This document shows positions 49,733 through 64,000 of a DNA stretch of 64,000 nt, piece by piece; the first letter of the stretch is position 1, and each line of letters begins with the position of its first letter. Position numbers and translations under genes: made by a program. Source of the DNA: Halorubrum aquaticum (GTDB lineage Archaea; Halobacteriota; Halobacteria; Halobacteriales; Haloferacaceae); the NCBI RefSeq assembly GCF_900113615.1, contig NZ_FOPZ01000015.1:1-64000 (forward strand), in the 5' to 3' direction. The notes below the pieces were generated by a model. It was not told where the DNA came from. It did no database searches and saw only the letters and a program-made list of their open reading frames with translations.

Positions 49733-51211
49733 ATGAGTTGGAAGGAGGTCGCCGAACCGGTGCTCTCGCGGATGCCCGTCGTGGAGCGGCCCGCGGGTCA
49801 CGTCCCGTTCAGACGTAAGCTCATGTGGACGGCGGGGATCCTGCTCGTCTACTTCTTTTTGACCAACATCAATCCGTTCGGCCTGGCGGCCGGACAGGGG
49901 AGCGACTTCTTCGGGCAGTTCCGCTCGGTGTTGGCCGGGGAGTCGGGCTCGCTGTTACAGGTCGGCATCGGGCCGATCGTCACGGCGTCGATCGTCTTGC
50001 AGCTGCTCGGCGGTGCGAACCTGCTCGGCCTCGATACGGACGACCCGCGCGATCAGGTCCTGTATCAGGGCCTCCAGAAGCTGCTCGTGATCATCGTCAC
50101 CGCGCTCACGGCCGCGCCGATGGTGTTCACCGGCGAGTTCCTTCCAGCCGATCAGGCCGTCGGACAGGCCCTCGGGATCGGCGAGTTCGGCGTCGAGGTA
50201 CTGATCTTCGCGCAGATCTTCGTCGGCGGCGTCCTCATCCTGTTCATGGACGAGATCGTGAGCAAGTGGGGCGTCGGCTCCGGCGTGGGGCTGTTCATCA
50301 TCGCCGCCGTCAGCCAGCAGATCGTCGGGGGCTTCTTCAGCTTCTCGGCGCTCGGCGCGCCCGGCTTCTTCGCGAGTTGGTACGGGATCGTCTTCGGCGA
50401 CGTTCCCGTCTCGTTGTCGCCGTTCACGGCCGAGGGGCTCCAGAACCTGCTTTTCGATCCGGGCAACGTTCTGGCGCTCTTCACGACGGTGTTCATCTTC
50501 GGGATCGTCGTGTACGCGGAGTCGGTCCGCGTCGAGATCCCGCTGTCACACGCCCGCGTGAAGGGCGCTCGCGGTCGCTTCCCCGTGAAGCTCATCTACG
50601 CGTCCGTCCTGCCGATGATCCTCGTTCGCGCGCTGCAGGCGAACGTCCAGTTCCTCGGCCAGATCCTCTCCTCGCAGTGGGCGGGGATGCCCGGATGGCT
50701 CGGGACCTACAGCGACCAGGGACAGCCCCTCTCGGGCCTGTTCTACTACCTGAACCCGATCCAGTCGCGGACCGAGTGGATGTGGTTCCTCGGGGAGATC
50801 CCGGCGTCGGTCGAGCCGTGGATGATCGCCGTTCGGCTCGCCATCGACCTGTTGTTCATGGTCGTCGGCGGGGCGATCTTCGCGATCTTCTGGGTCGAGA
50901 CCACCGGCATGGGGCCGGAGGCGACCGCGGAGCAGATCCAGAACTCCGGGATGCAGATCCCCGGGTTCCGTCGGAACCCGCAGGTCGTCGAGAAGGTCAT
51001 GGAGCGGTACATCCCGCAGGTGACCGTCATCGGCGGCGCGCTCGTCGGGCTGCTCGCCGTCATGGCGAACTTGCTCGGCACCATCGGACAGGTCTCCGGT
51101 ACGGGCCTGCTGCTCGCGGTCTCCATCACGTACAAGCTGTACGAGGAGATCGCAGAGGAGCAGCTCATGGAGATGCACCCGATGATGCGCCAGATGTTCG
51201 GTAACGAGTAA
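49733..51211 (+). CDS. secY: preprotein translocase subunit SecY
   Basis: 492 aa with ten transmembrane segments, the pore of the Sec61/SecYEG translocon. 'KLMWTAGILLVYFFLTNINP' is TM1, the plug region follows ('GLAAGQGSDFFGQFRSVLAG'), 'IGPIVTASIVLQLLGGANLL', the TM5-6 cytoplasmic loop 'GSGVGLFIIAAVSQQIVGGF', 'VEIPLSHARVKGARGRFPVK' in the ribosome-binding loop, and 'YIPQVTVIGGALVGLLAVMA' near the end. Last gene of the ribosomal operon here. In related haloarchaea adk usually follows; here the acquired island begins 50 bp downstream. Confidence 0.97.
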   Translation: MSWKEVAEPVLSRMPVVERPAGHVPFRRKLMWTAGILLVYFFLTNINPFGLAAGQGSDFFGQFRSVLAGESGSLLQVGIGPIVTASIVLQLLGGANLLGLDTDDPRDQVLYQGLQKLLVIIVTALTAAPMVFTGEFLPADQAVGQALGIGEFGVEVLIFAQIFVGGVLILFMDEIVSKWGVGSGVGLFIIAAVSQQIVGGFFSFSALGAPGFFASWYGIVFGDVPVSLSPFTAEGLQNLLFDPGNVLALFTTVFIFGIVVYAESVRVEIPLSHARVKGARGRFPVKLIYASVLPMILVRALQANVQFLGQILSSQWAGMPGWLGTYSDQGQPLSGLFYYLNPIQSRTEWMWFLGEIPASVEPWMIAVRLAIDLLFMVVGGAIFAIFWVETTGMGPEATAEQIQNSGMQIPGFRRNPQVVEKVMERYIPQVTVIGGALVGLLAVMANLLGTIGQVSGTGLLLAVSITYKLYEEIAEEQLMEMHPMMRQMFGNE

Positions 51212-51223
51212 CCCCATTGGGGT
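51211..51223 (+). terminator. small hairpin after secY
   Basis: ACCCC-ATT-GGGGT directly follows the secY stop codon (it starts on the last A of the TAA). It is short but perfect, and precedes the island's first promoter; a likely 3'-end structure of the ribosomal operon transcript at the new junction. Confidence 0.45.
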
Positions 51224-51230
51224 CCCACAC

Positions 51231-51238
51231 TTTATTTA
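51231..51238 (+). promoter_or_regulatory. TATA box of the first island gene
   Basis: TTTATTTA centred 27 bp upstream of the ATG at 51261, a leaderless arrangement. It makes the island genes independent of the ribosomal operon promoter. Confidence 0.6.
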
Positions 51239-51260
51239 GTAAGTCCACGTAGCCGCGGGT

Positions 51261-51881
51261 ATGGCCAGCGGCTCACACAGCAAAGTCAAACTCAACGTCC
51301 GTGTTCCGCCCTCGAAGAAAGAGGAGTGGAAGGACGCTCTGGAAGACGGTGAAACTCTCACTTCCCTCGTCCGCCGCGCTGTTGATAGGGAGATCAATAA
51401 CGAGTATACGCATGTCAAAACGGTTGAGAATCTCGGAGGGACGGACTCTGTAGATATCGACACGACAGGGATCGAGAACCGGATTGACGACCTACAATCG
51501 ACGGCCAACGCTGTAAATCGTAAAATCGACACATTAGCTGCGACTGTAGATGATGATGGAGAAGATGAGTCTATCGAAGGACTCTCGATGGATATTTTGC
51601 CGCGATTACCGGTATACCCGTCTGATATCCCGGACCACGTCCTCAGGGATATGGGTGGGAAGGAGGATATGACCTCAGAGGACTACGTCGAATTTATTGT
51701 TGAAGCCGGAATGGACCCGTCAACTGACGTGATGATCGACGGGTCGGCACAACGCATCTCGACTGATATGCGTGAGCCCGAACACAAGGTGCGACAGGCA
51801 CTGCTCCACTTGGAACAAAACACTACTGAGGGTGTCCATAGCGCGATCGTTGATGGAACGCGCCACTGGATGAGAGTGTGA
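51261..51881 (+). CDS. ribbon-helix-helix-like protein upstream of the integrase
   Basis: 206 aa. Residues 6-45 ('SKVKLNVRVPPSKKEEWKDA', 'LTSLVRRAVDREIN') look like a ribbon-helix-helix DNA-binding unit; residues 60-95 form a predicted coiled coil ('IENRIDDLQSTANAVNRKID'), and the C-terminal 100 residues ('LPRLPVYPSDIPDHVLRDMG', 'LLHLEQNTTEGVHSAIVDGT') may be a second winged-helix-like domain. It ends 4 bp before the integrase start, so the two are one unit, and it may control recombination as an excisionase or repressor; this is inference. Base composition is clearly lower in GC than secY. Confidence 0.7.
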   Translation: MASGSHSKVKLNVRVPPSKKEEWKDALEDGETLTSLVRRAVDREINNEYTHVKTVENLGGTDSVDIDTTGIENRIDDLQSTANAVNRKIDTLAATVDDDGEDESIEGLSMDILPRLPVYPSDIPDHVLRDMGGKEDMTSEDYVEFIVEAGMDPSTDVMIDGSAQRISTDMREPEHKVRQALLHLEQNTTEGVHSAIVDGTRHWMRV

Positions 51882-51885
51882 TAGT

Positions 51886-53007
51886 ATGCGGAATAACAAG
51901 GGCCAGTTTTTAACACCTGATGACAAGTCGATCAGTAGCGAATGTGAAGAGTTACTAGGCCTATATGTGGAGAGTCTCAAACAGCAAAAGGACGGGACGA
52001 AAGAGTCCACAATCACAACCCGACGTCGTGAAGTACGCTACTGGTTGGCGTTCTGTGAATCAAATAATATCGATCCTCTCGCTGCTACGACTGACGACGT
52101 TAAAGGATACATTCAGGTGAACTCACACCTTGCGGATACGACTCGGGGTTCGTATTATCGCTCCGTACAGTCATTCTACAGTATCGTCCAAAACGACGCT
52201 GCGGAGGAGCGACTCAAACTCGAAAACGGTCACCCGTGTAAGGATCGGGATACGATCAACCTGAAAGAGGATTACAACATCCACGAGAACAAGGCAGAGT
52301 ACAAACTCCAACACGATCTCGCGGGTGACGATATCGATGGTGTTCGGGACGGTTCGAGCGATATTCTCGCTCTCAAACCGGATCAAATTGAGCGACTGTT
52401 TGAGTCGGTATCGGGTAAGACACCGGAAGCGCGCCTTCGAAACGAGATCGCGGTGAGATTAAACTGGTATACTGGCTGTCGGAGCGTCGAACTATCGAGA
52501 TTGGATATCGATCAGATCGACTGGGAGGAGTGCAAGATTAATGTTCGAAGTGCCAAGTTGAACCCGAAGGAACATAGCGATCTAATCAGACGCGATGTTT
52601 ACTTCCCGGAAGAATTCCGATTCCAACTGAAGCGGTGGTGCCGAAGAGTTCGTCATTCCTTTTCGTCCGCAGTGGAACCCAACTCGGGGAATATCTTGGT
52701 CACCACTCAAAGTTCCAAAATGCCGGGACCGCAGATCAATAACATCGTCAAGCAAGCAGCCAAGAATGCTGGAGTACAGCGACCTCTACGTCCGGCCGAT
52801 TCGGGTCCTAACGATGAAATTAAAGAGTGGTTCGTTACGACTCATCGGATTCGGAGATCTGCTATTTCTCACTGGGTGAACGATTGTGAGTCGTTGGGAC
52901 TTCATCAGGTCAGGCGTATTGCGGGGCACGCGCGTATCGAACAGACGATGGACTATGTTGAGGACGACGACGATCAGATAGCCTCAGACTATCAAAAAGC
53001 AATGTAA
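51886..53007 (+). CDS. tyrosine recombinase / integrase
   Basis: 373 aa. The N-terminal SAM-like core-binding domain (residues 40-115, 'TTRRREVRYWLAFCESNNID') is followed by the catalytic domain with the full set: Arg199 in 'YTGCRSVELSRL', His320-x-x-Arg323 in 'HRIRRSAISHWVN', His348 in 'AGHARIEQT' and nucleophile Tyr357 in 'TMDYVEDD'. All expected residues are present, so it is probably active. It is the mobility gene of the island; the att site is not apparent as a tRNA next to secY. Codon use is lower in GC than the core. Confidence 0.92.
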   Translation: MRNNKGQFLTPDDKSISSECEELLGLYVESLKQQKDGTKESTITTRRREVRYWLAFCESNNIDPLAATTDDVKGYIQVNSHLADTTRGSYYRSVQSFYSIVQNDAAEERLKLENGHPCKDRDTINLKEDYNIHENKAEYKLQHDLAGDDIDGVRDGSSDILALKPDQIERLFESVSGKTPEARLRNEIAVRLNWYTGCRSVELSRLDIDQIDWEECKINVRSAKLNPKEHSDLIRRDVYFPEEFRFQLKRWCRRVRHSFSSAVEPNSGNILVTTQSSKMPGPQINNIVKQAAKNAGVQRPLRPADSGPNDEIKEWFVTTHRIRRSAISHWVNDCESLGLHQVRRIAGHARIEQTMDYVEDDDDQIASDYQKAM

Positions 53008-53047: not shown

Positions 53048-53668
53048 TCACTCACGCTTTTCTGGGAGTGTATTCCAGATGCGGTTGATATTTTCTGGGG
53101 TAGTAGCTGCTGGTGTAGTATTGTTGAGGAGCTCTCGGCCCCGTTCAGTGATCTTGTACTCCCCTTTATTCGAGGTTCGGCTGAGCAAGTCGTGGAAATA
53201 CAATTCGTATAGAACCCCATACACGGCGTAGATGTTGTCGTACTGACTCACGTCTTTTGCTTTTTGAGGCGTTATACTCGTCATGTCTGATAGACTACAC
53301 AACTGGTCATAGGCATCCACACTCGTGAGGACGATATCGTTTGGTCCGATCTCCCGGTCATCGACCTGTTCGTTGAGCTCGTCTGCTATCTCTATCGAAG
53401 ACGTAACTAACGCACCGAACAGTTCGCTGTGCTGCTTCTCATATTTTTCTCTTTTACCAAGCACAAAATCTCCTTTAGCAGTCGTAATGTACATTCCACT
53501 CCTTTCAGCGGGCCCTACCTCTTCAACCAGTTCTATCTCGGTTAGCTTGCTGAGTTCTTTACTCACGTAATTGGGAGTCACATCAACCAGTACAGACAAA
53601 TTCGATCTCGTCTCTCTATTCTCGGAACACACCTCTAAGATCCCCCAGTCGGTCTCTGATAGATCCAT
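53048..53668 (-). CDS. winged-helix transcriptional regulator
   Basis: 206 aa from the ATG at 53668. The N-terminal wHTH is 'LSETDWGILEVCSENRETRS' helix, 'NLSVLVDVTPNYVSKELSKL' recognition helix, and 'AERSGMYITTAKGDFVLGKR' wing. The C-terminal half (residues 85-206) is helical and may be a second wHTH ('VYGVLYELYFHDLLSRTSNK' plus 'GEYKITERGRELLNNTTPAA'). Typical plasmid/provirus regulator. It is divergent from the coiled-coil gene; an inverted repeat lies in the shared spacer. A GTG/ATG at 53707 would extend it by 13 residues, less likely. Confidence 0.75.
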   Translation of the reverse strand: MDLSETDWGILEVCSENRETRSNLSVLVDVTPNYVSKELSKLTEIELVEEVGPAERSGMYITTAKGDFVLGKREKYEKQHSELFGALVTSSIEIADELNEQVDDREIGPNDIVLTSVDAYDQLCSLSDMTSITPQKAKDVSQYDNIYAVYGVLYELYFHDLLSRTSNKGEYKITERGRELLNNTTPAATTPENINRIWNTLPEKRE

Positions 53669-53705
53669 GTACAAAACACAAACCCGTATCAAATAACTTT
53701 TGCGC

Positions 53706-53730
53706 AATAGATTATAATACTATATCTATT
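53706..53730. promoter_or_regulatory. inverted repeat in the divergent island promoter region
   Basis: AATAGAT-N11-ATCTATT, perfect arms, lies in an AT-rich spacer between the winged-helix regulator (start 53668) and the coiled-coil gene (TATA TTTATATA at 53758-53765). It is a good operator candidate for the adjacent regulator. Confidence 0.5.
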
Positions 53731-54810: not shown

Positions 54811-57276
54811 GTGTCACTCAACGCGCTCTTCGATACACCCGCGGTAAATTCTCCGTTCATCTCGTCCGGCAATCTCGCCGATGAAGAGCGACTAGTCCAC
54901 TTCCCGGCCTCAACGAGAGTACACGCAGGCCTCCTCAACGCGATGGTAGAGCGTGGTCAGGATCTCGTCATCGTGACACCATCTGACAGATCCGAGTTTT
55001 TACACCTCCACGCGCTTGAAGCTCTCTTTGGACCCAAGGTAGATGGTCGTAACGCGGTGTTTCTGCTCAGCTCCAACACGGCATTCCGCGAACGGTTCAG
55101 ACAACTGTCTCCGACGTCGATACGGCCACCACACGACAAATCTTGCTACGCGCGTGAGGAAACTCCGATAGCTAATGTGACGCAAGATGGATCCCTAGCG
55201 ACGGTCACGAAGAATCTCAATCATCCCGATAAGCCTGCACGGTTCCTCTTCTCGTACACGAGCACGCGCATTCCTTCGGACGATGTCGGAGATCGAATTC
55301 GATGTGTGATCTATGACGACTCCGTAAAGTACGACGAAGAACGCCTCCTCCGATTACTGAAGTGGAAAAAGCGAAACGACGTGCCTGCGATAGTCTACTT
55401 CACGAGTAATCCGACGTCAGACCTCGTGGAGAAACTACGAGGACGAGCATTCCTGTGGTCGTGGCCACCTCGGCTGTTGTCCGCCGTAGTCGAAAGTGAT
55501 CTCAATAGTGGGAACGAGTGGATGCGTACCGACGAGGAGGTGAGTCCGACGACTCGACGTTCTCAGGTCGTCGCCAGACGAGAGCAGAACCGCGTTTCGG
55601 GCCTCTCTATCGACGTTCATACGTGTGGCGACGGAGAAATTCTCAAGGCACTAAAACGAGCGAACAACCGCCGAGCGAAGTTCGAGTACTTGACGCGGGA
55701 GTTGGATGCGGACATCCTCAAGCGTGGGCAGCAACTTATACGATACGCTCTGGGGAGTTTCCGCGAACTCTTGACACCTCTCGACGTGGCCGACTTTCAT
55801 TCACGGCGGACGACGATATCGAGCCGACTCGCGCAACTCGATCGATTCGCGGGACGCATCGCATCTGACCCAGAAGCTAATCCCGCAACTGGCACGTTCC
55901 GTGACGTAGTCTCGGCTCTTGAAGAGTTAGAGGATATTTGGGACGATGTGCCTGCGAGCAACAAGAAGCAGGGCGTGTTAGTTAACAACCTGCTCTACGG
56001 TGCGCTGGACAGAGGAGACTCGATTTCTGTCATTACCGCGACAGAGAGTCAACAGCAGGCACTCACGATGTTCCTCCAGTCTGAGCACGCTTCCCTCTAC
56101 CGTGACCTGGGTGATGACCTCTCGATACACGACACTCACAGTGTTCGCTCGGCCGATCCCACGGACCACGTCGTCCTCTACGGTGCACTCCGGTGGGCCG
56201 ACCGCGATCTCCTCCGGACCGATGTCGCAACTGACGCTGTCGTCTTAGCGTATCCGATCGAGATGGGGCTCCTCCACTCACAAGTTGACGCCGTGGAGAA
56301 TTCTTTCAAATCGATTGCGGATGCCCCGTTCTGGAGCGTGATCGACAAGCTGACTCACCTCACTACGGAGGAACCCGCAGATGTCGAACGTGTGGACATT
56401 GACCTGCCCGAGTACGAAGAGCCCAGTACGAGCGATCTCGGTGGGGACATCTCCGTAGACGAGGCCGAAGGAGAAGACTTGGGTAATATCGTTCGAGGGT
56501 ACGAGACCGATTACGAGGATAGTGAAGAGTTCGACCCGACCGAGTACGAGACGTCTGCCACGAAACAGACGACCTCCTCCGGCGGATGGACCGAGACCGA
56601 CTGTCTTGACGTCCACTTTGACGAAGGCCTGTCCATGTACCTCCGGAAGGACACCGAAGTGTATTCGGTGCGCGAGGGCCACGACAAACTGTTCAAGAAG
56701 AACGCCTCACGGCTCAAGAAACACGACGTTGTCGTCCACTTGGAGGACACCGACGAGATACGTGAGGAACTGTACGCGTTGATCCGTGAACGTGGCGACG
56801 TCGGGCTGTACTACTACGCGAACCTGTGGAAAGTGAATCTAGAAGCTGCCTTGGAGGAGACCGGCGACGACCTGGACGATTTCGTGGAGAAAATCGAACA
56901 ACAGGGTCTCGACAAGGGACACGGTACCTACGAGCGGTGGTACAAGATGGAGGTCCATCGGACGCGGTCGAAGAAGAGCTTCTGGGCCATCGCCGAAGCG
57001 TACGATCTCGAAGGTGTGAAAGAGAACTTCAGCCAGGTATGGAACGCCGTTCAGGAGATGGAGACGATATACGGTCGTCTGAAGAAAGCACTCCGGCAGA
57101 CAGCACTTCGGTCTGCCGCCGACGGAACACTTGACGACGTAATGCTTTCGGAGAGTCCAGACATCCGCCTCAGCGACTTCGAGATCGGGAAGTACCTCTA
57201 TAGGATGGAAGTCCACTCGATAGAGGACGGTGTTGAGACCAAGAGTTCTCAGATCGGTCGGTTGCGTGGGGCCTAA
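54811..57276 (+). CDS. drmE: DrmE-like DISARM protein, first paralog
   Basis: 821 aa from a GTG. The layout suggests two RecA-like halves: N-terminal 'LVHFPASTRVHAGLLNAMVE', then 'FLFSYTSTRIPSDDVG' (about residue 143), 'IRCVIYDDSVKYDEERLLRL' in the place of a DExx motif, 'AIVYFTSNPTSDL' resembling motif III, a helical segment (about 290-400), and the second half 'DSISVITATESQQQALTMFL' and 'VVLAYPIEMGLLHSQVDAV'. No Walker A is visible, so ATPase activity is doubtful. The C-terminus has a beta module 'SRLKKHDVVVHLEDTDEIRE' and helices 'LIRERGDVGLYYYANLWKV'. DrmE identity rests on size, order before a DrmA-like gene and general resemblance. GC is lower than the core. Confidence 0.6.
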   Translation: MSLNALFDTPAVNSPFISSGNLADEERLVHFPASTRVHAGLLNAMVERGQDLVIVTPSDRSEFLHLHALEALFGPKVDGRNAVFLLSSNTAFRERFRQLSPTSIRPPHDKSCYAREETPIANVTQDGSLATVTKNLNHPDKPARFLFSYTSTRIPSDDVGDRIRCVIYDDSVKYDEERLLRLLKWKKRNDVPAIVYFTSNPTSDLVEKLRGRAFLWSWPPRLLSAVVESDLNSGNEWMRTDEEVSPTTRRSQVVARREQNRVSGLSIDVHTCGDGEILKALKRANNRRAKFEYLTRELDADILKRGQQLIRYALGSFRELLTPLDVADFHSRRTTISSRLAQLDRFAGRIASDPEANPATGTFRDVVSALEELEDIWDDVPASNKKQGVLVNNLLYGALDRGDSISVITATESQQQALTMFLQSEHASLYRDLGDDLSIHDTHSVRSADPTDHVVLYGALRWADRDLLRTDVATDAVVLAYPIEMGLLHSQVDAVENSFKSIADAPFWSVIDKLTHLTTEEPADVERVDIDLPEYEEPSTSDLGGDISVDEAEGEDLGNIVRGYETDYEDSEEFDPTEYETSATKQTTSSGGWTETDCLDVHFDEGLSMYLRKDTEVYSVREGHDKLFKKNASRLKKHDVVVHLEDTDEIREELYALIRERGDVGLYYYANLWKVNLEAALEETGDDLDDFVEKIEQQGLDKGHGTYERWYKMEVHRTRSKKSFWAIAEAYDLEGVKENFSQVWNAVQEMETIYGRLKKALRQTALRSAADGTLDDVMLSESPDIRLSDFEIGKYLYRMEVHSIEDGVETKSSQIGRLRGA

Positions 57277-57401
57277 TTGCCCCGTATTCTTTCTGGCATG
57301 TCCAAAACCCAGCCTAGAAGAATAGTGGCTCGTCATCCCGCTGCTCTACCATTATCAGCAATTGCTAAAAGTTTACAAGTGCCACCTGTGAACTCAAATT
57401 A

Positions 57402-59834
57402 ATGAGTTTGGGGGCGGACGTCGTTGAGGGTGTGATCTCTCGGTTCAGCAATAGCGGAAATGCGATGCTCCAAACTGATGACGGTGAAGAATGGAACGTG
57501 GGCCCATTACCAGCGTCCGCTGAGGGGGAGAGAATTAGGGCGAAGGTTATTGACAGTTTATGGGCTGTTTGTGTGGAGCGGCCCTACGCTAACAAGGAAT
57601 ATTTGGAGGAGATGCGTTCTCGAACAGATCTTTCACAGCAGGAATTACAACTATCAAATACTGGATCTACAGCACCAGTAGAAGACGTAGGGGAGGTATT
57701 CCAAGTAACTTACAGCTCAAATACCGATTTTTCAGAATACGACGGCGGAAAGCCGATATATGTAAACTTGCCTCAAGTTCTTGAAGGTCTAAACTTCGGG
57801 GATCAACTACCGGCACGGATAATCTTCGTAAGACGTGGTATCGCAGTGGCTGTTCCAGCTCTTGACTCGTTGTCCTTCGGCGAGATCGCCGCAGGAGATA
57901 TTGTAGAAGTGGAAGTTGAAGAAACGATCAGCGATGGAGAGGGAATTGTGGGGTTTGAGTCACGGCGTGGGCTGCCTGTCGTGTCCTCTGACGTTGTCGG
58001 ATTCCAGGGTGCAACGTTGAAACTCGGTGTTGTGGACGTGTTCAATAGTCACGTAGCCGTTAGCCCGTCTGTTCTGCCCGAGGGAAGTCTACCCACAATT
58101 GGTGAAGTACTCCTTGTGGACATAGTACGGTCGTTATCGGACGGAACGGCGAGGGGTTTGTACGAGAGAATTCCGACAGTCACTCCCGACTCGCTCGGAT
58201 GTTTCGGTGTTTCCGACCCATTCAAAATGGCGGTCACAGGATACAGCGAACGCGGGGTCTCTGTAAGTGTAGAGGCAGTACCGAAGGAGAAACGACCTGA
58301 TATCGGAGATACTGTAGAGTGCACAGTGATCACACCGTATAAGGATGGAACTTTTTGTAGGGTTGAGGACTTCCCGGTGTGGGTTTCAGACACAGTTCCG
58401 ACGCCAGTATCTTCTTTTCAACTGTCTATCCTCGGCGTGACCCCGTCACATCTAGTGGGGAGCATAGCTCAACTACCTACGATATGCGATCTTGAAGAGG
58501 GAGATTCCCTCTCCGTAGAGATTCAATTTGAGGACGAGAACGACGGCATTGGGTTGTATAGTGGAGCTCCGATTGTAGTTCCCGATGGACGAGAACTTAA
58601 GGGGAAGAGAGCCAGATTCGGAGTTGAAGAGGTGAGGGACGCGTCTGTTGTCGTCGGTGTAAACGCGTTAGATGATGTACCGAAGGTGAATGAAGTTGTT
58701 ACCCTCCCGAACGAAGGTCGGCAAGGTGGTCGTATCTGTGTCGTGGATAGTCTCCCGTTCGTCCTCCCACCTGGTAGTGACTGGCCGTCGGGAGACGTAC
58801 GACTAGGGGTTAGCGAGGTGGCACCTATGGGGATTAAACTAAGTGTAGCAGACCTCCCGCCAGAGCACCGCCCCGACAAAGGAGACGAAATAGAAGTATG
58901 TTACTCAGATATTGACCCACATACGGCGATGACACTGATAGATGGGGTTCCTGTTCAAATTCCACAGTACGAGTGGTCTTTCCACGGCCCTCTCCGGTTA
59001 GGAGTGAGTCAAGTACGGTCAAACTGTGTTGCCTGTTCGGTCGGTGGTTTGTCGTCGGTTCCTGCTCCTGGGGAACGCGCCACTGCAACTATTGACGAAG
59101 CCACAGAGGATGGTTGTGGTGGCAGAGTAAACAAAGTGCCGACCTTCTTTCCTCGAATGAATTCCTTATCCAGGGATGATACCGAAGTATTACTTATTGA
59201 CGTTGACGAGGATTTCCTCGTCGCTGTGGAGATCAATTCTATTGCGAGAGATCTTGATGTGGAGAACGCGACTCTCGTTGCGTACTACAGGGAGCTCCTA
59301 CATGCGAAAGAGTGTTGGGAGGATGATGAATTTTACGAGGCGAGAGAATATTGTCAAGCGGCTAGAGAATTAGTGACGGGCGACAATGACATTGCTGAGC
59401 TTCTCCGTCTGGATGCGAGAAGACACGAGATTATTTTGGCGGGTGAGCAAGTCAGAAGAGAACGGGGGGCAGGAGAGGCGAGAAAAATAGTAAAGGAGAT
59501 GATTGAATCGTTCGTTGAGTCAAATGGGCCCGTCACTGAATCTCTAGTTGATGAGTTACAGGCATACCGGTTAGTCCTTGACGCGTACCGAAGTTCTGAT
59601 AGCGAATCACGTGTCACAATCAGTAAAGGATATCTTATTGCCGTCGTGCGAAAGATGACCGATGCGAGGAACAGAGAAGAAAATCGATGGAAGAGCGTCA
59701 CTCCTCATCCAGTAATCTCAACTCTGTTAGCGAGAATACGTCTACCGTCCGTGCCAGCTGCAGGGAAGATTAACGAAATCGTCTCTGACACTCCTGAATA
59801 CTGGCCGTTCTTGACACTCTCGGAACTCACGTGA
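57402..59834 (+). CDS. multi-repeat OB/TRAM-like beta protein between the two DrmE-like genes, unknown family
   Basis: 810 aa, not recognised. Residues 1-610 contain about seven divergent modules of 55-65 residues with the pattern 'GD-x-(V/L)-x-V-x(6-8)-D-G-x-G-x(5-8)-(L/F)-P-V-x-V' then 'F-x-G-x-(L/V)-K/R-L-G-V-x-x-V'; clear units begin near GDIVEVEVEETISDGEGIVG, GDTVECTVITPYKDGTFCRV, GDSLSVEIQFEDENDGIGLY and GDEIEVCYSDIDPHTAMTLI. This spacing resembles TRAM/S1-type OB barrels, which bind RNA or ssDNA. The last 190 residues are helical ('LLHAKECWEDDEFYEAREYC') and could be TPR/MIT-like. No catalytic motif. Start ATG at 57402; a TAAAAGTTTACAAG element is just upstream. Codon use is AT-rich. 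Confidence 0.6.
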   Translation: MSLGADVVEGVISRFSNSGNAMLQTDDGEEWNVGPLPASAEGERIRAKVIDSLWAVCVERPYANKEYLEEMRSRTDLSQQELQLSNTGSTAPVEDVGEVFQVTYSSNTDFSEYDGGKPIYVNLPQVLEGLNFGDQLPARIIFVRRGIAVAVPALDSLSFGEIAAGDIVEVEVEETISDGEGIVGFESRRGLPVVSSDVVGFQGATLKLGVVDVFNSHVAVSPSVLPEGSLPTIGEVLLVDIVRSLSDGTARGLYERIPTVTPDSLGCFGVSDPFKMAVTGYSERGVSVSVEAVPKEKRPDIGDTVECTVITPYKDGTFCRVEDFPVWVSDTVPTPVSSFQLSILGVTPSHLVGSIAQLPTICDLEEGDSLSVEIQFEDENDGIGLYSGAPIVVPDGRELKGKRARFGVEEVRDASVVVGVNALDDVPKVNEVVTLPNEGRQGGRICVVDSLPFVLPPGSDWPSGDVRLGVSEVAPMGIKLSVADLPPEHRPDKGDEIEVCYSDIDPHTAMTLIDGVPVQIPQYEWSFHGPLRLGVSQVRSNCVACSVGGLSSVPAPGERATATIDEATEDGCGGRVNKVPTFFPRMNSLSRDDTEVLLIDVDEDFLVAVEINSIARDLDVENATLVAYYRELLHAKECWEDDEFYEAREYCQAARELVTGDNDIAELLRLDARRHEIILAGEQVRRERGAGEARKIVKEMIESFVESNGPVTESLVDELQAYRLVLDAYRSSDSESRVTISKGYLIAVVRKMTDARNREENRWKSVTPHPVISTLLARIRLPSVPAAGKINEIVSDTPEYWPFLTLSELT

Positions 59835-59928
59835 GTGGACACTGGTAATTAACGGGCGTCAATAATCTGGTTCGGTTACGACTTACTCCAGGACAAGAGA
59901 TATCAGAGAGAACTTTGTTGTCTGCGGT

Positions 59929-62370
59929 ATGTCGTTCACGGACGGTCTCCGGAAGCCTGCTCTCCCTCTACCGACGATTGACACCGGAGCGCTCTCACGT
60001 GACGGACGGCCGATTGATGTACTTCAGACGACTAGACTACACTCGTCGTTAATCCGTCGCAGCATCACCACCGGTTCAGAGTTGTGTGTAGTGAATCCGA
60101 CGGCGAAGTCCGAGCAGCTCTCCGTTATTGCTGCTGACGTCTTGACCGCGACAACTGGTGAGGAACGAGATATGGTGTTCGTACTGAGTTCGGACACTCA
60201 GATTAGGGAGAAGTTCCGAGCGTTCACTCCACCAGGGTCTCCCTCTGAGGACTCACTTAGTGAAATTGAGTGGCCGGTAGCGAATGTGGATGCAGAAGGT
60301 TATTTATCGAGAGTGACAGGTGACCCCGATGGCCCCGTCCCTAGATTCCTCTTCACCTATACGAGTAAACGGATTCCGACGGACACAGTTGGGTCGCGTG
60401 TCGCTTGTGTTTTGTACGACGACACGGTGAAGTTCACCGAAGAGCGGTTAGCAGAGCTTAGGGAGTGGCGGAACCAGAACGGAATTCCGGCGATTTCGTA
60501 CTTCACGAGTGACCCGTTGAGTGACCTCTTTGACATCGTGTCTAATCAAGCGTCCGTATGGTGTTGGCCTACAGAACTGATTCGAGAGGCAACGGACACT
60601 GACAGTCGCCGTAGAGACTCCCTTTCACTCTTCAACACCGGCACAAATTCACGACACAAGATAACCCGTGTAGAGGATCAACTCAGGAATCGCGCGTTAG
60701 GTGTCTCAATCGAGGTACACGCACCAGGCGGAGATACAGTTGAAGGACTCCTAGAAAACGTGCAATCGGCTCGTTTTGAGTTTGAGAAACTGGTGCGAGA
60801 GATGGACGAGGATACGCTCTGGCGTGCTCGAAGTAGTCTGCGCTACGCTGTTCGGCAAATTGAAGAGCTCCTGTCTCCGCTAGATATCGCAGAAGCGCAC
60901 TCAAGGCGCTCGCTGTCGGCGCGTGTCAATCAGCTTGAACGCTACGCGTCACGTATAGGCTCAGATTCACGCGCATCACCAGCGGCAGGAACCTACAGGG
61001 ATGCCGTTTCTGAGATTAGAGAATTGGCGGATCGATGGCCAGACGTGCCGGTTGGGGAGAAAAAAGAAGGACAGATCGTATCACTCCTTATAGAAATCGC
61101 AGACAAAGACGAGAGCGTCATTATAGTTGCTCCGACAGGAAACGCAGCGCAAGCGGTCGTGACTCACCTACAAACAGAGTACAGATCACTATACAATGAC
61201 CTCGGTGAATCGCTTCAAGTTCACGACGCAAAAAGTGTTCGAACGACAGAACCTGTAGAACACATGATTCTCTACGGTGCTCCTCGGTATGATCAGCGGT
61301 CACTGCTCCGCTTAGCCATTGCCCCCCACGTCATCATCCTTGCTTACCCATCTGAGCTCAGATTGCTCAATAGCCAAGTTGAATCGCTGAATGAGACGTT
61401 TGAGGAAGTTTCGCGTCGGTCTGATTGGGATCTAGTGGCTGAAGTAACTGAGGCAGCTTGCGGTGGCGAGATGACACCGTCGCCGGAGCTAGTTCAGGTC
61501 ACCGTCCCTGATCCAGAAACGGGATCCAGAAGCGACCTTGTGCAAGACATAGATTTTCGAGGAAGAGAAGCCGAGGAAGATTTAGCAGAGTTAGTACGTA
61601 CGTTCGATCCCGACTATCAGACCCCCAGTGAAGACCCAATCGGAGACGGTACAAATGAAGCCAATACTAATCACAACTCCAGGACCACTTGCACTGTCTT
61701 ACGGGTGGAACGGGGCGGAAAAGTATACTCCAGGCCGAACGAACAGGTCTCAATCCTACGGTCAGACCACGGAGAAGTATTCACTAAGAAGGCTGAGAAC
61801 GTTCGCCCAGGTGATGTCATCCTCCACTTTAGAGATACTGATCTGATGCGAGACAGTCTTTACGATCTGATACGAGAGCGCGGTGATGCACAGCTCGCCT
61901 TTTACGCGAGTAGTTGGCGTGTTCTACTCAAGAGAGCTATCGAAGATCGAGGTGACGGACTTGACGATTTCATCAGGCAGGTGGAACAGCACTTGGACGA
62001 AGGCGACCAAAAGACACGACAGACCTACCGAAACTGGTACAATCAGGACGTGAGTCGCACACGCTCTAAGAATAGTATGTTAGCAATCGCCGAGGCGTAC
62101 GAACTAGACTTCGTCGTTGAGAACCTCGATACTGTGTGGAGTGCGGTACATCAAATGGAGAATCTCTATCGGAAACTCAGAGAAGCGTTGGAGGAACACA
62201 TGCTACAAGCAGCGACAAATGGTGAGTTTGAAGACGTAGTAGTCAGTGAGTCGCCCGAGATCCGTTTGAGTGACTTTGATGTGGACAGACACCTCCTCCG
62301 GCTCACTGTCGAGTCTGTGAACAATGAGGAGAGCGTCCCCACGTATAAGATCGGACACGCAGAACTCTAA
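59929..62370 (+). CDS. drmE: DrmE-like DISARM protein, second paralog
   Basis: 813 aa, co-linear with the 54811-57276 protein over its whole length. Shared blocks: 'FLFTYTSKRIPTDTVG' (about residue 141), 'VACVLYDDTVKFTEERLAEL', 'AISYFTSDPLSDL', 'LSPLDIAEAHSRRSLSARVN', 'MILYGAPRYDQRSLLRLAI', 'VIILAYPSELRLLNSQVESL', 'LYDLIRERGDAQLAFYASSW' and 'VVVSESPEIRLSDFDVDRHL'. As in the first paralog, no Walker A is visible and 'LYDD' stands where a DExx box would be. Overall divergence is high, so the duplication is old and both copies are kept, suggesting a heteromer. It precedes the DrmA-like gene, the usual drmE position in class 2 DISARM. Confidence 0.6.
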   Translation: MSFTDGLRKPALPLPTIDTGALSRDGRPIDVLQTTRLHSSLIRRSITTGSELCVVNPTAKSEQLSVIAADVLTATTGEERDMVFVLSSDTQIREKFRAFTPPGSPSEDSLSEIEWPVANVDAEGYLSRVTGDPDGPVPRFLFTYTSKRIPTDTVGSRVACVLYDDTVKFTEERLAELREWRNQNGIPAISYFTSDPLSDLFDIVSNQASVWCWPTELIREATDTDSRRRDSLSLFNTGTNSRHKITRVEDQLRNRALGVSIEVHAPGGDTVEGLLENVQSARFEFEKLVREMDEDTLWRARSSLRYAVRQIEELLSPLDIAEAHSRRSLSARVNQLERYASRIGSDSRASPAAGTYRDAVSEIRELADRWPDVPVGEKKEGQIVSLLIEIADKDESVIIVAPTGNAAQAVVTHLQTEYRSLYNDLGESLQVHDAKSVRTTEPVEHMILYGAPRYDQRSLLRLAIAPHVIILAYPSELRLLNSQVESLNETFEEVSRRSDWDLVAEVTEAACGGEMTPSPELVQVTVPDPETGSRSDLVQDIDFRGREAEEDLAELVRTFDPDYQTPSEDPIGDGTNEANTNHNSRTTCTVLRVERGGKVYSRPNEQVSILRSDHGEVFTKKAENVRPGDVILHFRDTDLMRDSLYDLIRERGDAQLAFYASSWRVLLKRAIEDRGDGLDDFIRQVEQHLDEGDQKTRQTYRNWYNQDVSRTRSKNSMLAIAEAYELDFVVENLDTVWSAVHQMENLYRKLREALEEHMLQAATNGEFEDVVVSESPEIRLSDFDVDRHLLRLTVESVNNEESVPTYKIGHAEL

Positions 62371-62420
62371 CTTCAATAGATTTGTTGCTACGATAGCTCT
62401 TGCGCGGACTCTTGGACTCT

Positions 62421-62624
62421 CTATAGTTCGTCAAACTCGGGCGGGGCACAACTATCCTGGTCATCTATCTGCTCAACAAATCCTGGCCAAAGGTACGCCG
62501 GCCGTACTGTCGCTGATACAGGCACGTGATTCTCACCATTTAGGTACTGTAACTCAATAACACACAGTGGAAAATCTGTATCAACAAGCGAGATGTCTTT
62601 GCGGCTCCAATCGCACTTGTCCAC
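62421..62624 (-). CDS. possible small protein opposite the cluster
   Basis: 67 aa from a GTG. The translation 'DISLVDTDFPLCVIELQYLN' and 'VRPAYLWPGFVEQIDDQDSC' has a protein-like texture and is preceded on the minus strand by TAAGTTTAGG, a TATA-like element, but only about 10 bp before the start, which is too close. It may be a remnant of a longer gene or a chance frame. It fills most of the 62371-62658 spacer, which otherwise shows nothing but the promoter region of the DrmA-like gene. Confidence 0.3.
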   Translation of the reverse strand: MDKCDWSRKDISLVDTDFPLCVIELQYLNGENHVPVSATVRPAYLWPGFVEQIDDQDSCAPPEFDEL

Positions 62625-62658
62625 CTAAACTTATGACACTCTGTCGTGATGAGAGCAT

Positions 62659-64000
62659 ATGGGACTCGGGCCGCGCGAAATTCCACCTAAATCTGATTCT
62701 CGTCAGTACGCTCGACCACCGGACGACGCATACGAGATAACAGAAGACGACAAGGAGTACCAGCGGCACCAAGCTGTCAATAACGTCCTCCTGGAACGAC
62801 TCGTCGAACGGATTACTGGGCAGGGCGAGTACGGTGAAACGGTCTACGACGTTAACCCAAAGGATCAGTTCTTCGCAGGTGCGTTAGCGAGTCAGTATCA
62901 GTACCGCGAAGCTCAGGAATCCGACGACGCGTTCGGGAACATCGCTACACGAGTTGCACCCTTCACTATGGGGCTCCAGTTTAAGCTCCCAGGGTCAGTT
63001 CCAGACGACGAGACGGTGGAGATCAATCCTACTGCCAAGGTATACTATCGCCGTCTACCAACTTACGAGGAACAACAGGAGTTCGGCGGGCCGGTCGGAT
63101 TCGATCCGGAGATAGCCGAGGACGACGCACTCACGCCAGCTGAAGAGGACGAAGACTCCGAGGTGGAGGACGCCGAAGACGAAGACACCGCTGGATACGC
63201 TGGGGACGACGGATCGCTAGAGGAACTGCGACCGGTGTACGAACGAGTCCAGATTGACGTCGGCCCTCTTACAGTCACTGCGGGCGAACTGAAGCGTGCG
63301 GCGCAATCCGATGGTGAGCTACCCCCACTCACGGACGACGATGCGGTGACGGATGCGATGGAGACCTACCGACAAGACGAACGCCGTTACCGGGAGCCCG
63401 ATCCGCCAGAAGAGGTAGACCGTCGTAACGAGGACAAGATTCCGGAAACTGCTCTGGAAGACGAGGAAACCTTCGAGGCGTTCTTAGAACAACGATTCAG
63501 TGGAGACACGCCGACCCCGGTGTGGGATTTCGAGATATCACTCACAGCCCAATACGACGACGACGACATTATCGTCTCCGTCTCCTTCGTGAACAAACAC
63601 GGTGTCGGGTACCCAGACGCACTCGACCCGAAAGGGGAGGAGTGGCGGGCGTTCCTCTTCGACGTCAACACCGACGTCTCTGTTGAGGAGACTCCGATCG
63701 AACCGTTCGTCTCAGACGAGATCAGGAACGAGTACCACTACGACCCCGAGATGGACGGTCTCGGACGCAACTGTAGCGTCGAACGGACCGATCCCACCAC
63801 GATAGAGACGGTGACCGTCCCGATTCACGAGCAGCGAAAGTATCGTAGCCGAGAGACGCTCTCTGCTCCGTTCAGTGACTTCGCGTGGGGGACTATCGAG
63901 ACCCACTTGGATCGCATCTCTCGGGAGATGGTGGAAGCCCGGGAACAGTACGAGTCGATACGCTCCGAGATCCTTAACGACCGGAGCGACGAAGCACGCG
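62659..64000 (+). CDS. drmA: DrmA-like DISARM helicase, N-terminal part (runs off the window)
   Basis: 447 codons are visible with no stop to the window end. The N-terminal region has 'VNNVLLERLVERITGQGEYG', 'NPKDQFFAGALASQYQYREA', 'RVAPFTMGLQFKLPGSVPDD' and 'AKVYYRRLPTYEEQQEFGGP', the arrangement I associate with the domain preceding the helicase in DrmA (product-size statement, then 'P-mGl-f' and 'YYR-PTYEEQ'). An acidic linker of about 35 residues (about 155-190) and a second beta domain ('VWDFEISLTAQYDDDDIIVS') follow. The helicase motifs expected further on lie outside the window, so the call depends on N-terminal resemblance and on position after a DrmE-like gene. DISARM DrmA and DrmB form a complex blocking phage DNA. 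Confidence 0.55.
   Translation, partial: MGLGPREIPPKSDSRQYARPPDDAYEITEDDKEYQRHQAVNNVLLERLVERITGQGEYGETVYDVNPKDQFFAGALASQYQYREAQESDDAFGNIATRVAPFTMGLQFKLPGSVPDDETVEINPTAKVYYRRLPTYEEQQEFGGPVGFDPEIAEDDALTPAEEDEDSEVEDAEDEDTAGYAGDDGSLEELRPVYERVQIDVGPLTVTAGELKRAAQSDGELPPLTDDDAVTDAMETYRQDERRYREPDPPEEVDRRNEDKIPETALEDEETFEAFLEQRFSGDTPTPVWDFEISLTAQYDDDDIIVSVSFVNKHGVGYPDALDPKGEEWRAFLFDVNTDVSVEETPIEPFVSDEIRNEYHYDPEMDGLGRNCSVERTDPTTIETVTVPIHEQRKYRSRETLSAPFSDFAWGTIETHLDRISREMVEAREQYESIRSEILNDRSDEAR

What the first reader, a model, noticed from the sequence alone, without database searches (positions are those of the whole stretch)
54811..64000. DISARM-like cluster with duplicated DrmE and a new repeat protein
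Gene order is DrmE-like, repeat protein, DrmE-like, DrmA-like. Class 2 DISARM, as known, has one drmE ahead of drmA, drmB, drmC and a cytosine methyltransferase. Two old full-length paralogs on either side of an uncharacterised 810-aa beta-repeat protein would be a distinct subtype or a new system built on DISARM parts. All lie on an integrase-bearing island.
Basis: partly seen in the sequence, partly recalled or inferred. Interest (0 to 1): 0.88.

Follow-up and report, generated by a model that had tools for sequence, protein, structure and literature searches.

The report
Archaeal DISARM with extra DrmE cassette
This salt-loving archaeon carries a complete antivirus system of a known type (class 2 DISARM) into which two extra genes have been added, an old second form of the DrmE protein and a nuclease-less relative of archaeal restriction enzymes, an arrangement seen in no other genome searched.

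Summary
In detail: DrmE1 (54811-57276), an 810-aa repeat protein (57402-59834), DrmE2 (59929-62370) and DrmA (from 62659) lie in a row. Past the window end the contig carries drmB, drmC and a C5 methyltransferase: a complete class 2 DISARM, not a new system. Six close relatives in other haloarchaea share this core but have one DrmE and no repeat protein. The repeat protein and DrmE2 thus look like a two-gene cassette just upstream of the conserved drmA promoter region. DrmE2 is no recent duplicate: it branches outside the whole DrmE1 clade. Both DrmEs look constrained, and the genome has one DrmA. The repeat protein is an HNH-less member of a haloarchaeal family of tandem TRAM/OB-like domains, TPR-like helices and usually an HNH nuclease, whose members lie beside phosphorothioation, type I R-M and other defence genes. 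DrmE models (low confidence) as an SF2 helicase fold, without a P-loop. Most likely the cassette is an accessory recognition or DNA-holding module for the single DrmAB engine (inferred); passenger genes remain a serious rival. Because the arrangement was found in one genome only, 'subtype' is premature: a new variant of a known kind.

The parts
51886..53007 (+). tyrosine integrase of the island, 373 aa
   Evidence: Pfam Phage_integrase 5e-14; GC drop from about 51.2 kb
54811..57276 (+). DrmE1, 821 aa
   Evidence: PADLOC DrmE 1608 bits, NCBIfam DrmE_fam 93 bits, above cut-off; 77-90% identical to the single DrmE of six to seven other haloarchaeal loci
57402..59834 (+). repeat protein (called RepX here), 810 aa: N-terminal SNSGN domain (about 1-83), eight ~65-aa beta units (91-617), helical TPR-like C-terminus, no HNH domain
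   Evidence: repeat profile and leave-one-out; relatives with the same layout plus HNH
59929..62370 (+). DrmE2, 813 aa, divergent DrmE
   Evidence: PADLOC DrmE 1486 bits, Pfam DrmE_C 41 bits, above cut-off; sister to the whole DrmE1 clade
62624..62658 (+). conserved drmA promoter/leader region (TATA-like cctaaactta)
   Evidence: local alignment to four of six relatives beyond 200 shuffles; promoter reading by eye
62659..64000 (+). drmA, 1235 aa; runs on to contig position 66366. Beyond the window on the same contig (same numbering): drmB 66363-68318, drmC 68315-69199, GmrSD_N/AlbA_2 gene 69265-71478, unknown pair 71668-73432, PDC-M33-like trio 73440-77069 (minus strand), drmMII 77262-78377, HhH-GPD glycosylase 78386-78946
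   Evidence: catalytic motifs of DrmA, DrmC and DrmMII present

Best explanation
A complete class 2 DISARM has gained a two-gene accessory cassette, RepX plus a divergent DrmE2, between drmE1 and drmA. Shown: the complete DISARM core; one DrmA in the genome; relatives with the same core but without the cassette; DrmE2 branching outside the DrmE1 clade; both DrmEs conserved. Inferred: DrmMII marks host DNA; the DrmAB helicase loads on unmarked viral DNA; DrmE proteins are P-loop-less, SF2-helicase-like subunits that hold DNA or regulate DrmAB; DrmE2, with RepX as a TRAM/OB-array nucleic-acid binder that docks through its TPR-like helices, forms a second recognition or loading arm on the same DrmAB engine. 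RepX needs no nuclease of its own because cutting is left to DrmC or another nuclease.
For: Core genes and intact motifs. Relatives lack only the cassette. One DrmA. DrmE2 keeps DrmE-family conserved positions as well as DrmE1: 26 against 30 departures at 85 columns invariant in seven outgroup DrmEs. DrmE1 dN/dS 0.08-0.11, as among relatives. The drmA promoter region is intact behind the cassette. RepX relatives live in defence loci, and their HNH domains match type IV restriction models. Repeat model nearest to TRAM/S1/OB folds. DrmE2 model nearest to SF2 helicases, no P-loop.
Against: The arrangement was found in one genome, so there is no conservation of the pair to show joint function. The DrmE2 model is of low confidence (pLDDT 54.5) and the repeat-unit fold matches are not significant (E above 1). 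DrmE2 departs at 8 of 53 columns invariant in the 14 other DrmEs. No RepX relative outside this genome was seen in a DISARM locus.
Confidence: 0.5

Rival explanations
1. Passenger genes: recombination within the defence island dropped a lone RepX and the DrmE of another (lost or foreign) DISARM between drmE1 and drmA. DrmE2 is redundant or interchangeable with DrmE1, and RepX has nothing to do with DISARM.
For: Only one genome has the pair. The drmE-drmA gap also holds unrelated inserted gene pairs in two other genomes (L042, L044), and GmrSD is another variable insert. GC3 of RepX and DrmE2 (0.47, 0.52) differs from DrmE1/DrmA/DrmB (0.66-0.73).
Against: Both ORFs are full length and open, and DrmE2 keeps the family's conserved positions. 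RepX and DrmE2 sit head to tail, in the operon direction, with gaps of about 94-290 nt.
Confidence: 0.35
2. Ancestral pair: the ancestor of this DISARM lineage had DrmE1, RepX and DrmE2, and all known relatives lost RepX and DrmE2.
For: DrmE2 is the sister of the whole DrmE1 clade, as expected of an old duplicate.
Against: It needs the same clean two-gene loss in all six relatives read, including the most divergent one (77% DrmE identity, L041); lower GC3 of both genes fits acquisition better.
Confidence: 0.1
3. RepX and DrmE2 form a separate defence system of their own that merely sits inside the DISARM operon.
For: RepX relatives are apparently independent restriction-like proteins.
Against: Of the DrmE loci read, all lie in front of a drmA except the IS-flanked copy of Halobacterium pNRC200. 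Neither RepX nor DrmE2 shows a nuclease family or a P-loop.
Confidence: 0.05

Closest known systems
Class 2 DISARM (drmE, drmA, drmB, drmC, drmMII)
   Same: All five components, in the usual order drmE-drmA-drmB-drmC, with a C5 methyltransferase on the same island; six haloarchaeal relatives mostly 80-97% identical
   Different: A second, 41%-identical DrmE and RepX between drmE and drmA; methyltransferase separated from drmC by about 8 kb, as in the relatives
Haloarchaeal tandem SNSGN/TRAM-like HNH proteins (unnamed family; e.g. Haladaptatus caseinilyticus OOF89_RS16765, WP_266080625.1)
   Same: N-terminal SNSGN domain, tandem beta units, helical region before the C-terminus
   Different: RepX has no HNH domain and lies in a DISARM operon; overall identity only about 22-26%
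SF2 helicases (XPB, RIG-I, UvsW)
   Same: Two RecA-like lobes suggested by the DrmE2 model; Foldseek E down to 1.7e-7
   Different: No P-loop in the window DrmEs or in nearly all of the family; low TM-score

Membership tests
Class 2 DISARM | DrmA: SF2 helicase of the DISARM clade with intact motifs | tested here: met
   PADLOC DrmA models, several independent ones with E down to 6e-106; TGGGKT, DELH and QAYSRVGR motifs
Class 2 DISARM | DrmB with DUF1998/MZB domain as a separate gene | tested here: met
   PADLOC DrmB; Pfam MZB 27.2 bits, cut-off 24.2
Class 2 DISARM | DrmC, PLD-family nuclease | tested here: met
   PADLOC DrmC; Pfam PLDc_2 3e-19; HAKIVIVD...GSAN motif
Class 2 DISARM | C5 cytosine methyltransferase DrmMII | tested here: met
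   PADLOC DrmMII 882 bits; Pfam DNA_methylase 3e-47; PCQ and ENV motifs
Class 2 DISARM | DrmE upstream of drmA | tested here: met
   Two DrmEs; the known arrangement has one, as in all relatives read
Class 2 DISARM | Protection against viruses | not testable with these tools
   needs a virus challenge
Haloarchaeal SNSGN/HNH restriction-like family (RepX) | N-terminal SNSGN domain and tandem beta units | tested here: met
   tblastn to Haladaptatus protein E 1e-10; repeat profile hits L051 8e-10, L094 2e-6, L066 8e-6, best shuffle 0.48
Haloarchaeal SNSGN/HNH restriction-like family (RepX) | C-terminal HNH nuclease | tested here: not met
   no HNH in RepX; present in L051, L066 (weak), L094, L095-L098; also absent in L093
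TRAM/OB-fold proteins (RepX units) | Significant sequence or fold match to TRAM or OB domains | tested here: inconclusive
   Pfam TRAM E 0.21 on L093 only; top PDB neighbours are TRAM/S1/OB but E above 1
SF2 helicases (DrmE) | Walker A P-loop | tested here: not met
   no GK[ST] in 14 of 15 DrmEs, both window copies included
SF2 helicases (DrmE) | Two RecA-like domains | tested here: inconclusive
   low-confidence model, SF2 matches E down to 1.7e-7 with TM about 0.2

The most novel reading that the evidence does not exclude
A two-arm DISARM: DrmE1 and DrmE2 are two helicase-like recognition subunits serving one DrmAB engine, bridged by a restriction protein that has lost its nuclease, so that DISARM recognition can be extended by plug-in cassettes at the drmE-drmA junction.
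Probability: 0.25. Interest if true: 0.7.

Novelty: new variant of a known kind. Interest (0 to 1): 0.45.

Why it matters
What DrmE does is an open question in DISARM: Bravo et al. 2022 (PMC9142583) name DrmD and DrmE as components whose part in activation still has to be studied. A natural locus with two divergent DrmEs and one DrmAB is a direct test bed: removing one DrmE at a time would show whether DrmE sets target specificity. The case also ties a large, unnamed haloarchaeal family of tandem TRAM/OB-like HNH proteins to defence loci, and points to the drmE-drmA gap as a place where accessory genes settle.

Tried and rejected
Recent tandem duplication of drmE: rejected, 41% identity and DrmE2 outside the DrmE1 clade. 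A second DISARM in the genome that owns DrmE2: rejected, one DrmA (the assembly has 40 contigs and is about 99.5% complete). Decayed DrmE2: not supported, conserved positions kept. My first reading of the intergenic alignment, that both halves of the ancestral drmE-drmA gap survive on the two sides of the cassette: only the drmA side holds against shuffles, so the left junction is unresolved, and the notebook entry on this point is superseded. No direct repeat of 8-14 nt at the two junctions. Searches without result: genome contigs with DrmE2 alone, viral contigs with RepX and with the DrmE alignment, phages with RepX, PDB sequences with the DrmE profile. An alignment of overlapping repeat pairs (A6) was spoilt by shared segments and not used. 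The founding DISARM paper (Ofir et al. 2018) is not held, so whether DrmE duplication was noted there could not be checked.

Full report
Observation. The last 9 kb of the window encode DrmE1, an 810-aa repeat protein (RepX here), DrmE2 and the start of DrmA, all on the plus strand. The contig runs 20 kb past the window. There lie the rest of drmA, drmB, drmC, a GmrSD_N/AlbA_2 gene, two unknown genes, three minus-strand genes two of which match PADLOC's PDC-M33 candidate, a C5 methyltransferase and an HhH-GPD glycosylase. Every component that defines class 2 DISARM is present, with catalytic motifs.

Caution on names. PADLOC's DrmE and DrmA profiles have the lengths of these very proteins (821 and 1235) and score them near self level. 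That shows that such sequences were already counted as DISARM by its authors; it is not independent proof. Independent models agree, at different margins: NCBIfam DrmE_fam passes DrmE1 but leaves DrmE2 under its cut-off, Pfam DrmE_C passes DrmE2 but leaves DrmE1 under its cut-off. Other DrmA, DrmB and DrmC models also match strongly. A full-length alignment with 13 other DrmEs leaves no doubt about homology.

Relatives. Of 391 genomes drawn from the class, 15, this one included, hold a DrmE-like match. Six relatives whose loci were read (L036-L041) have a DrmE 77-90% identical to DrmE1 directly in front of drmA, then drmB, drmC, mostly the unknown pair, the PDC-M33-like trio, drmMII and HhH. 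None has a second DrmE or RepX. The class, family and order draws (391, 170 and 392 genomes, overlapping) found two DrmEs only in the window's genome, and RepX in full only there. That genome has one DrmA. These searches score few candidates per genome, so a missed distant copy is possible, a missed close one unlikely.

The cassette. The last 35 or so bases before drmA, with a TATA-like cctaaactta, match four of six relatives beyond 200 shuffles, so RepX and DrmE2 lie upstream of a preserved drmA promoter region. The left junction could not be fixed. GC3 of RepX (0.471) and DrmE2 (0.522) is below that of DrmE1, DrmA and DrmB (0.655-0.733). In a maximum-likelihood tree DrmE2 is the sister of the entire DrmE1 clade on a long branch, support 100; the program warns that long branches can be misplaced. 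The simplest reading is that a divergent DrmE and RepX were acquired together; an old duplicate lost by all relatives is possible but costs more events.

Constraint. Against relatives DrmE1 has dN/dS of 0.08-0.11 (one further comparison is saturated), as the relatives have among themselves, so nothing was relaxed when DrmE2 arrived. At 85 columns invariant in seven outgroup DrmEs, DrmE2 departs at 26 and DrmE1 at 30; at 53 columns invariant in the other 14, DrmE2 departs at 8. Both look functional.

RepX. Residues 91-617 hold eight units of about 65 aa; a profile of the other units recognises units 2-7 better than 1000 shuffles, units 1 and 8 less clearly. A profile of these units alone finds tandem copies in three other haloarchaeal proteins. 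Those proteins share RepX's N-terminal domain and a helical region and, unlike RepX, end in an HNH domain that PADLOC files with type IV restriction enzymes. One further relative (L093) lacks HNH too. Members of the wider family lie next to Pbe phosphorothioation-based genes (L094), a type I R-M system (L098), a TmtA-like gene (L093) and a DUF262-type gene (L097). An AlphaFold2 model of one unit, with the eight units as its alignment, has five strands (pLDDT 79); its best PDB neighbours are archaeal TRAM proteins, S1 domains and TRAM domains of RNA-modifying enzymes, but none is significant. Nucleic-acid binding by a TRAM/OB-like array is likely, not shown.

DrmE. The DrmE2 model from six sequences is of low confidence (pLDDT 54.5), yet its best PDB matches are all SF2 helicases or translocases (RIG-I, XPB, Chd1, UvsW; E down to 1.7e-7), with low TM-scores. 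Neither window DrmE, nor 12 of the 13 others aligned, has a GK[ST] motif. DrmE may thus be a helicase-fold subunit that does not hydrolyse ATP. I saw no such statement in the papers I could read, but the founding paper was not available.

Mechanism. Bravo et al. (PMC9142583) show DrmAB as an autoinhibited helicase released by ssDNA loading and leave DrmE's part open. I propose that DrmE2 and RepX form an additional recognition or loading arm for the same DrmAB, with cutting left to DrmC or other nucleases. This is inference. The rival, passengers of island recombination, is nearly as good: the arrangement has been seen once, and the drmE-drmA gap holds other gene pairs in two further genomes (L042, L044).

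Comparison with what is known. The YprA-helicase survey of 2025 (PMC12458937) places DISARM in a clade with many uncharacterised DISARM-like classes; the passages found there do not mention a doubled DrmE. By its defining parts this locus is class 2 DISARM; what is new is the pair RepX-DrmE2.

Verdict. Observation confirmed; interpretation partly supported; a new variant of a known kind, of moderate interest because it makes the role of DrmE testable, held back by its single occurrence.

Noticed in passing
L002:11440-15069 (contig 73440-77069, minus strand); also L108-L113: Three-gene set (229, 345 and 634 aa; first and last match PADLOC PDC-M33C and PDC-M33A) lies between the DISARM core and drmMII in the relatives too, and a second diverged copy follows in most of them. 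It may be a DISARM-associated module in haloarchaea.
   Followed up: partly
L002:9668-11432; L044:9-10 kb region; L042 (gene pair between drmE and drmA): A pair of unknown genes (335 and 254 aa) is conserved with haloarchaeal DISARM; a homologous pair lies between drmE and drmA in Halorhabdus tiamatea, and an unrelated-by-BLAST pair at the same spot in L042. By eye the second gene looks PIN-like, so it could be a toxin-antitoxin pair.
   Followed up: partly
L002:7265-9478: GmrSD_N domain (DUF262) fused to a C-terminal Schlafen AlbA_2 domain, present in only some of the DISARM relatives (94% in L038).
   Followed up: no
L002:16386-16946: HhH-GPD glycosylase gene directly behind the C5 methyltransferase in all relatives read; possibly repairs deaminated 5-methylcytosine.
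   Followed up: no
L050:11971-14478 (Halobacterium salinarum NRC-1 pNRC200): DrmE gene flanked by insertion-sequence transposases, with no annotated drmA nearby.
   Followed up: no
L005-L016, L093-L098, L051: Large unnamed haloarchaeal family with the SNSGN (TRAM-like) domain in varied fusions: to HNH nucleases, to a phosphoesterase that looks SbcD-like by eye (L011-L014), and in short proteins with a winged-helix-like N-terminus.
   Followed up: partly
window 49733-53007: The low-GC island begins right after a SecY-like gene (named by eye), with a 206-aa gene and the integrase first; the attachment site was not determined.
   Followed up: no
window 53048-53707 (minus strand): Winged-helix gene with weak similarity to the HTH part of CARF/Csa3-type regulators, between integrase and DISARM.
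   Followed up: no
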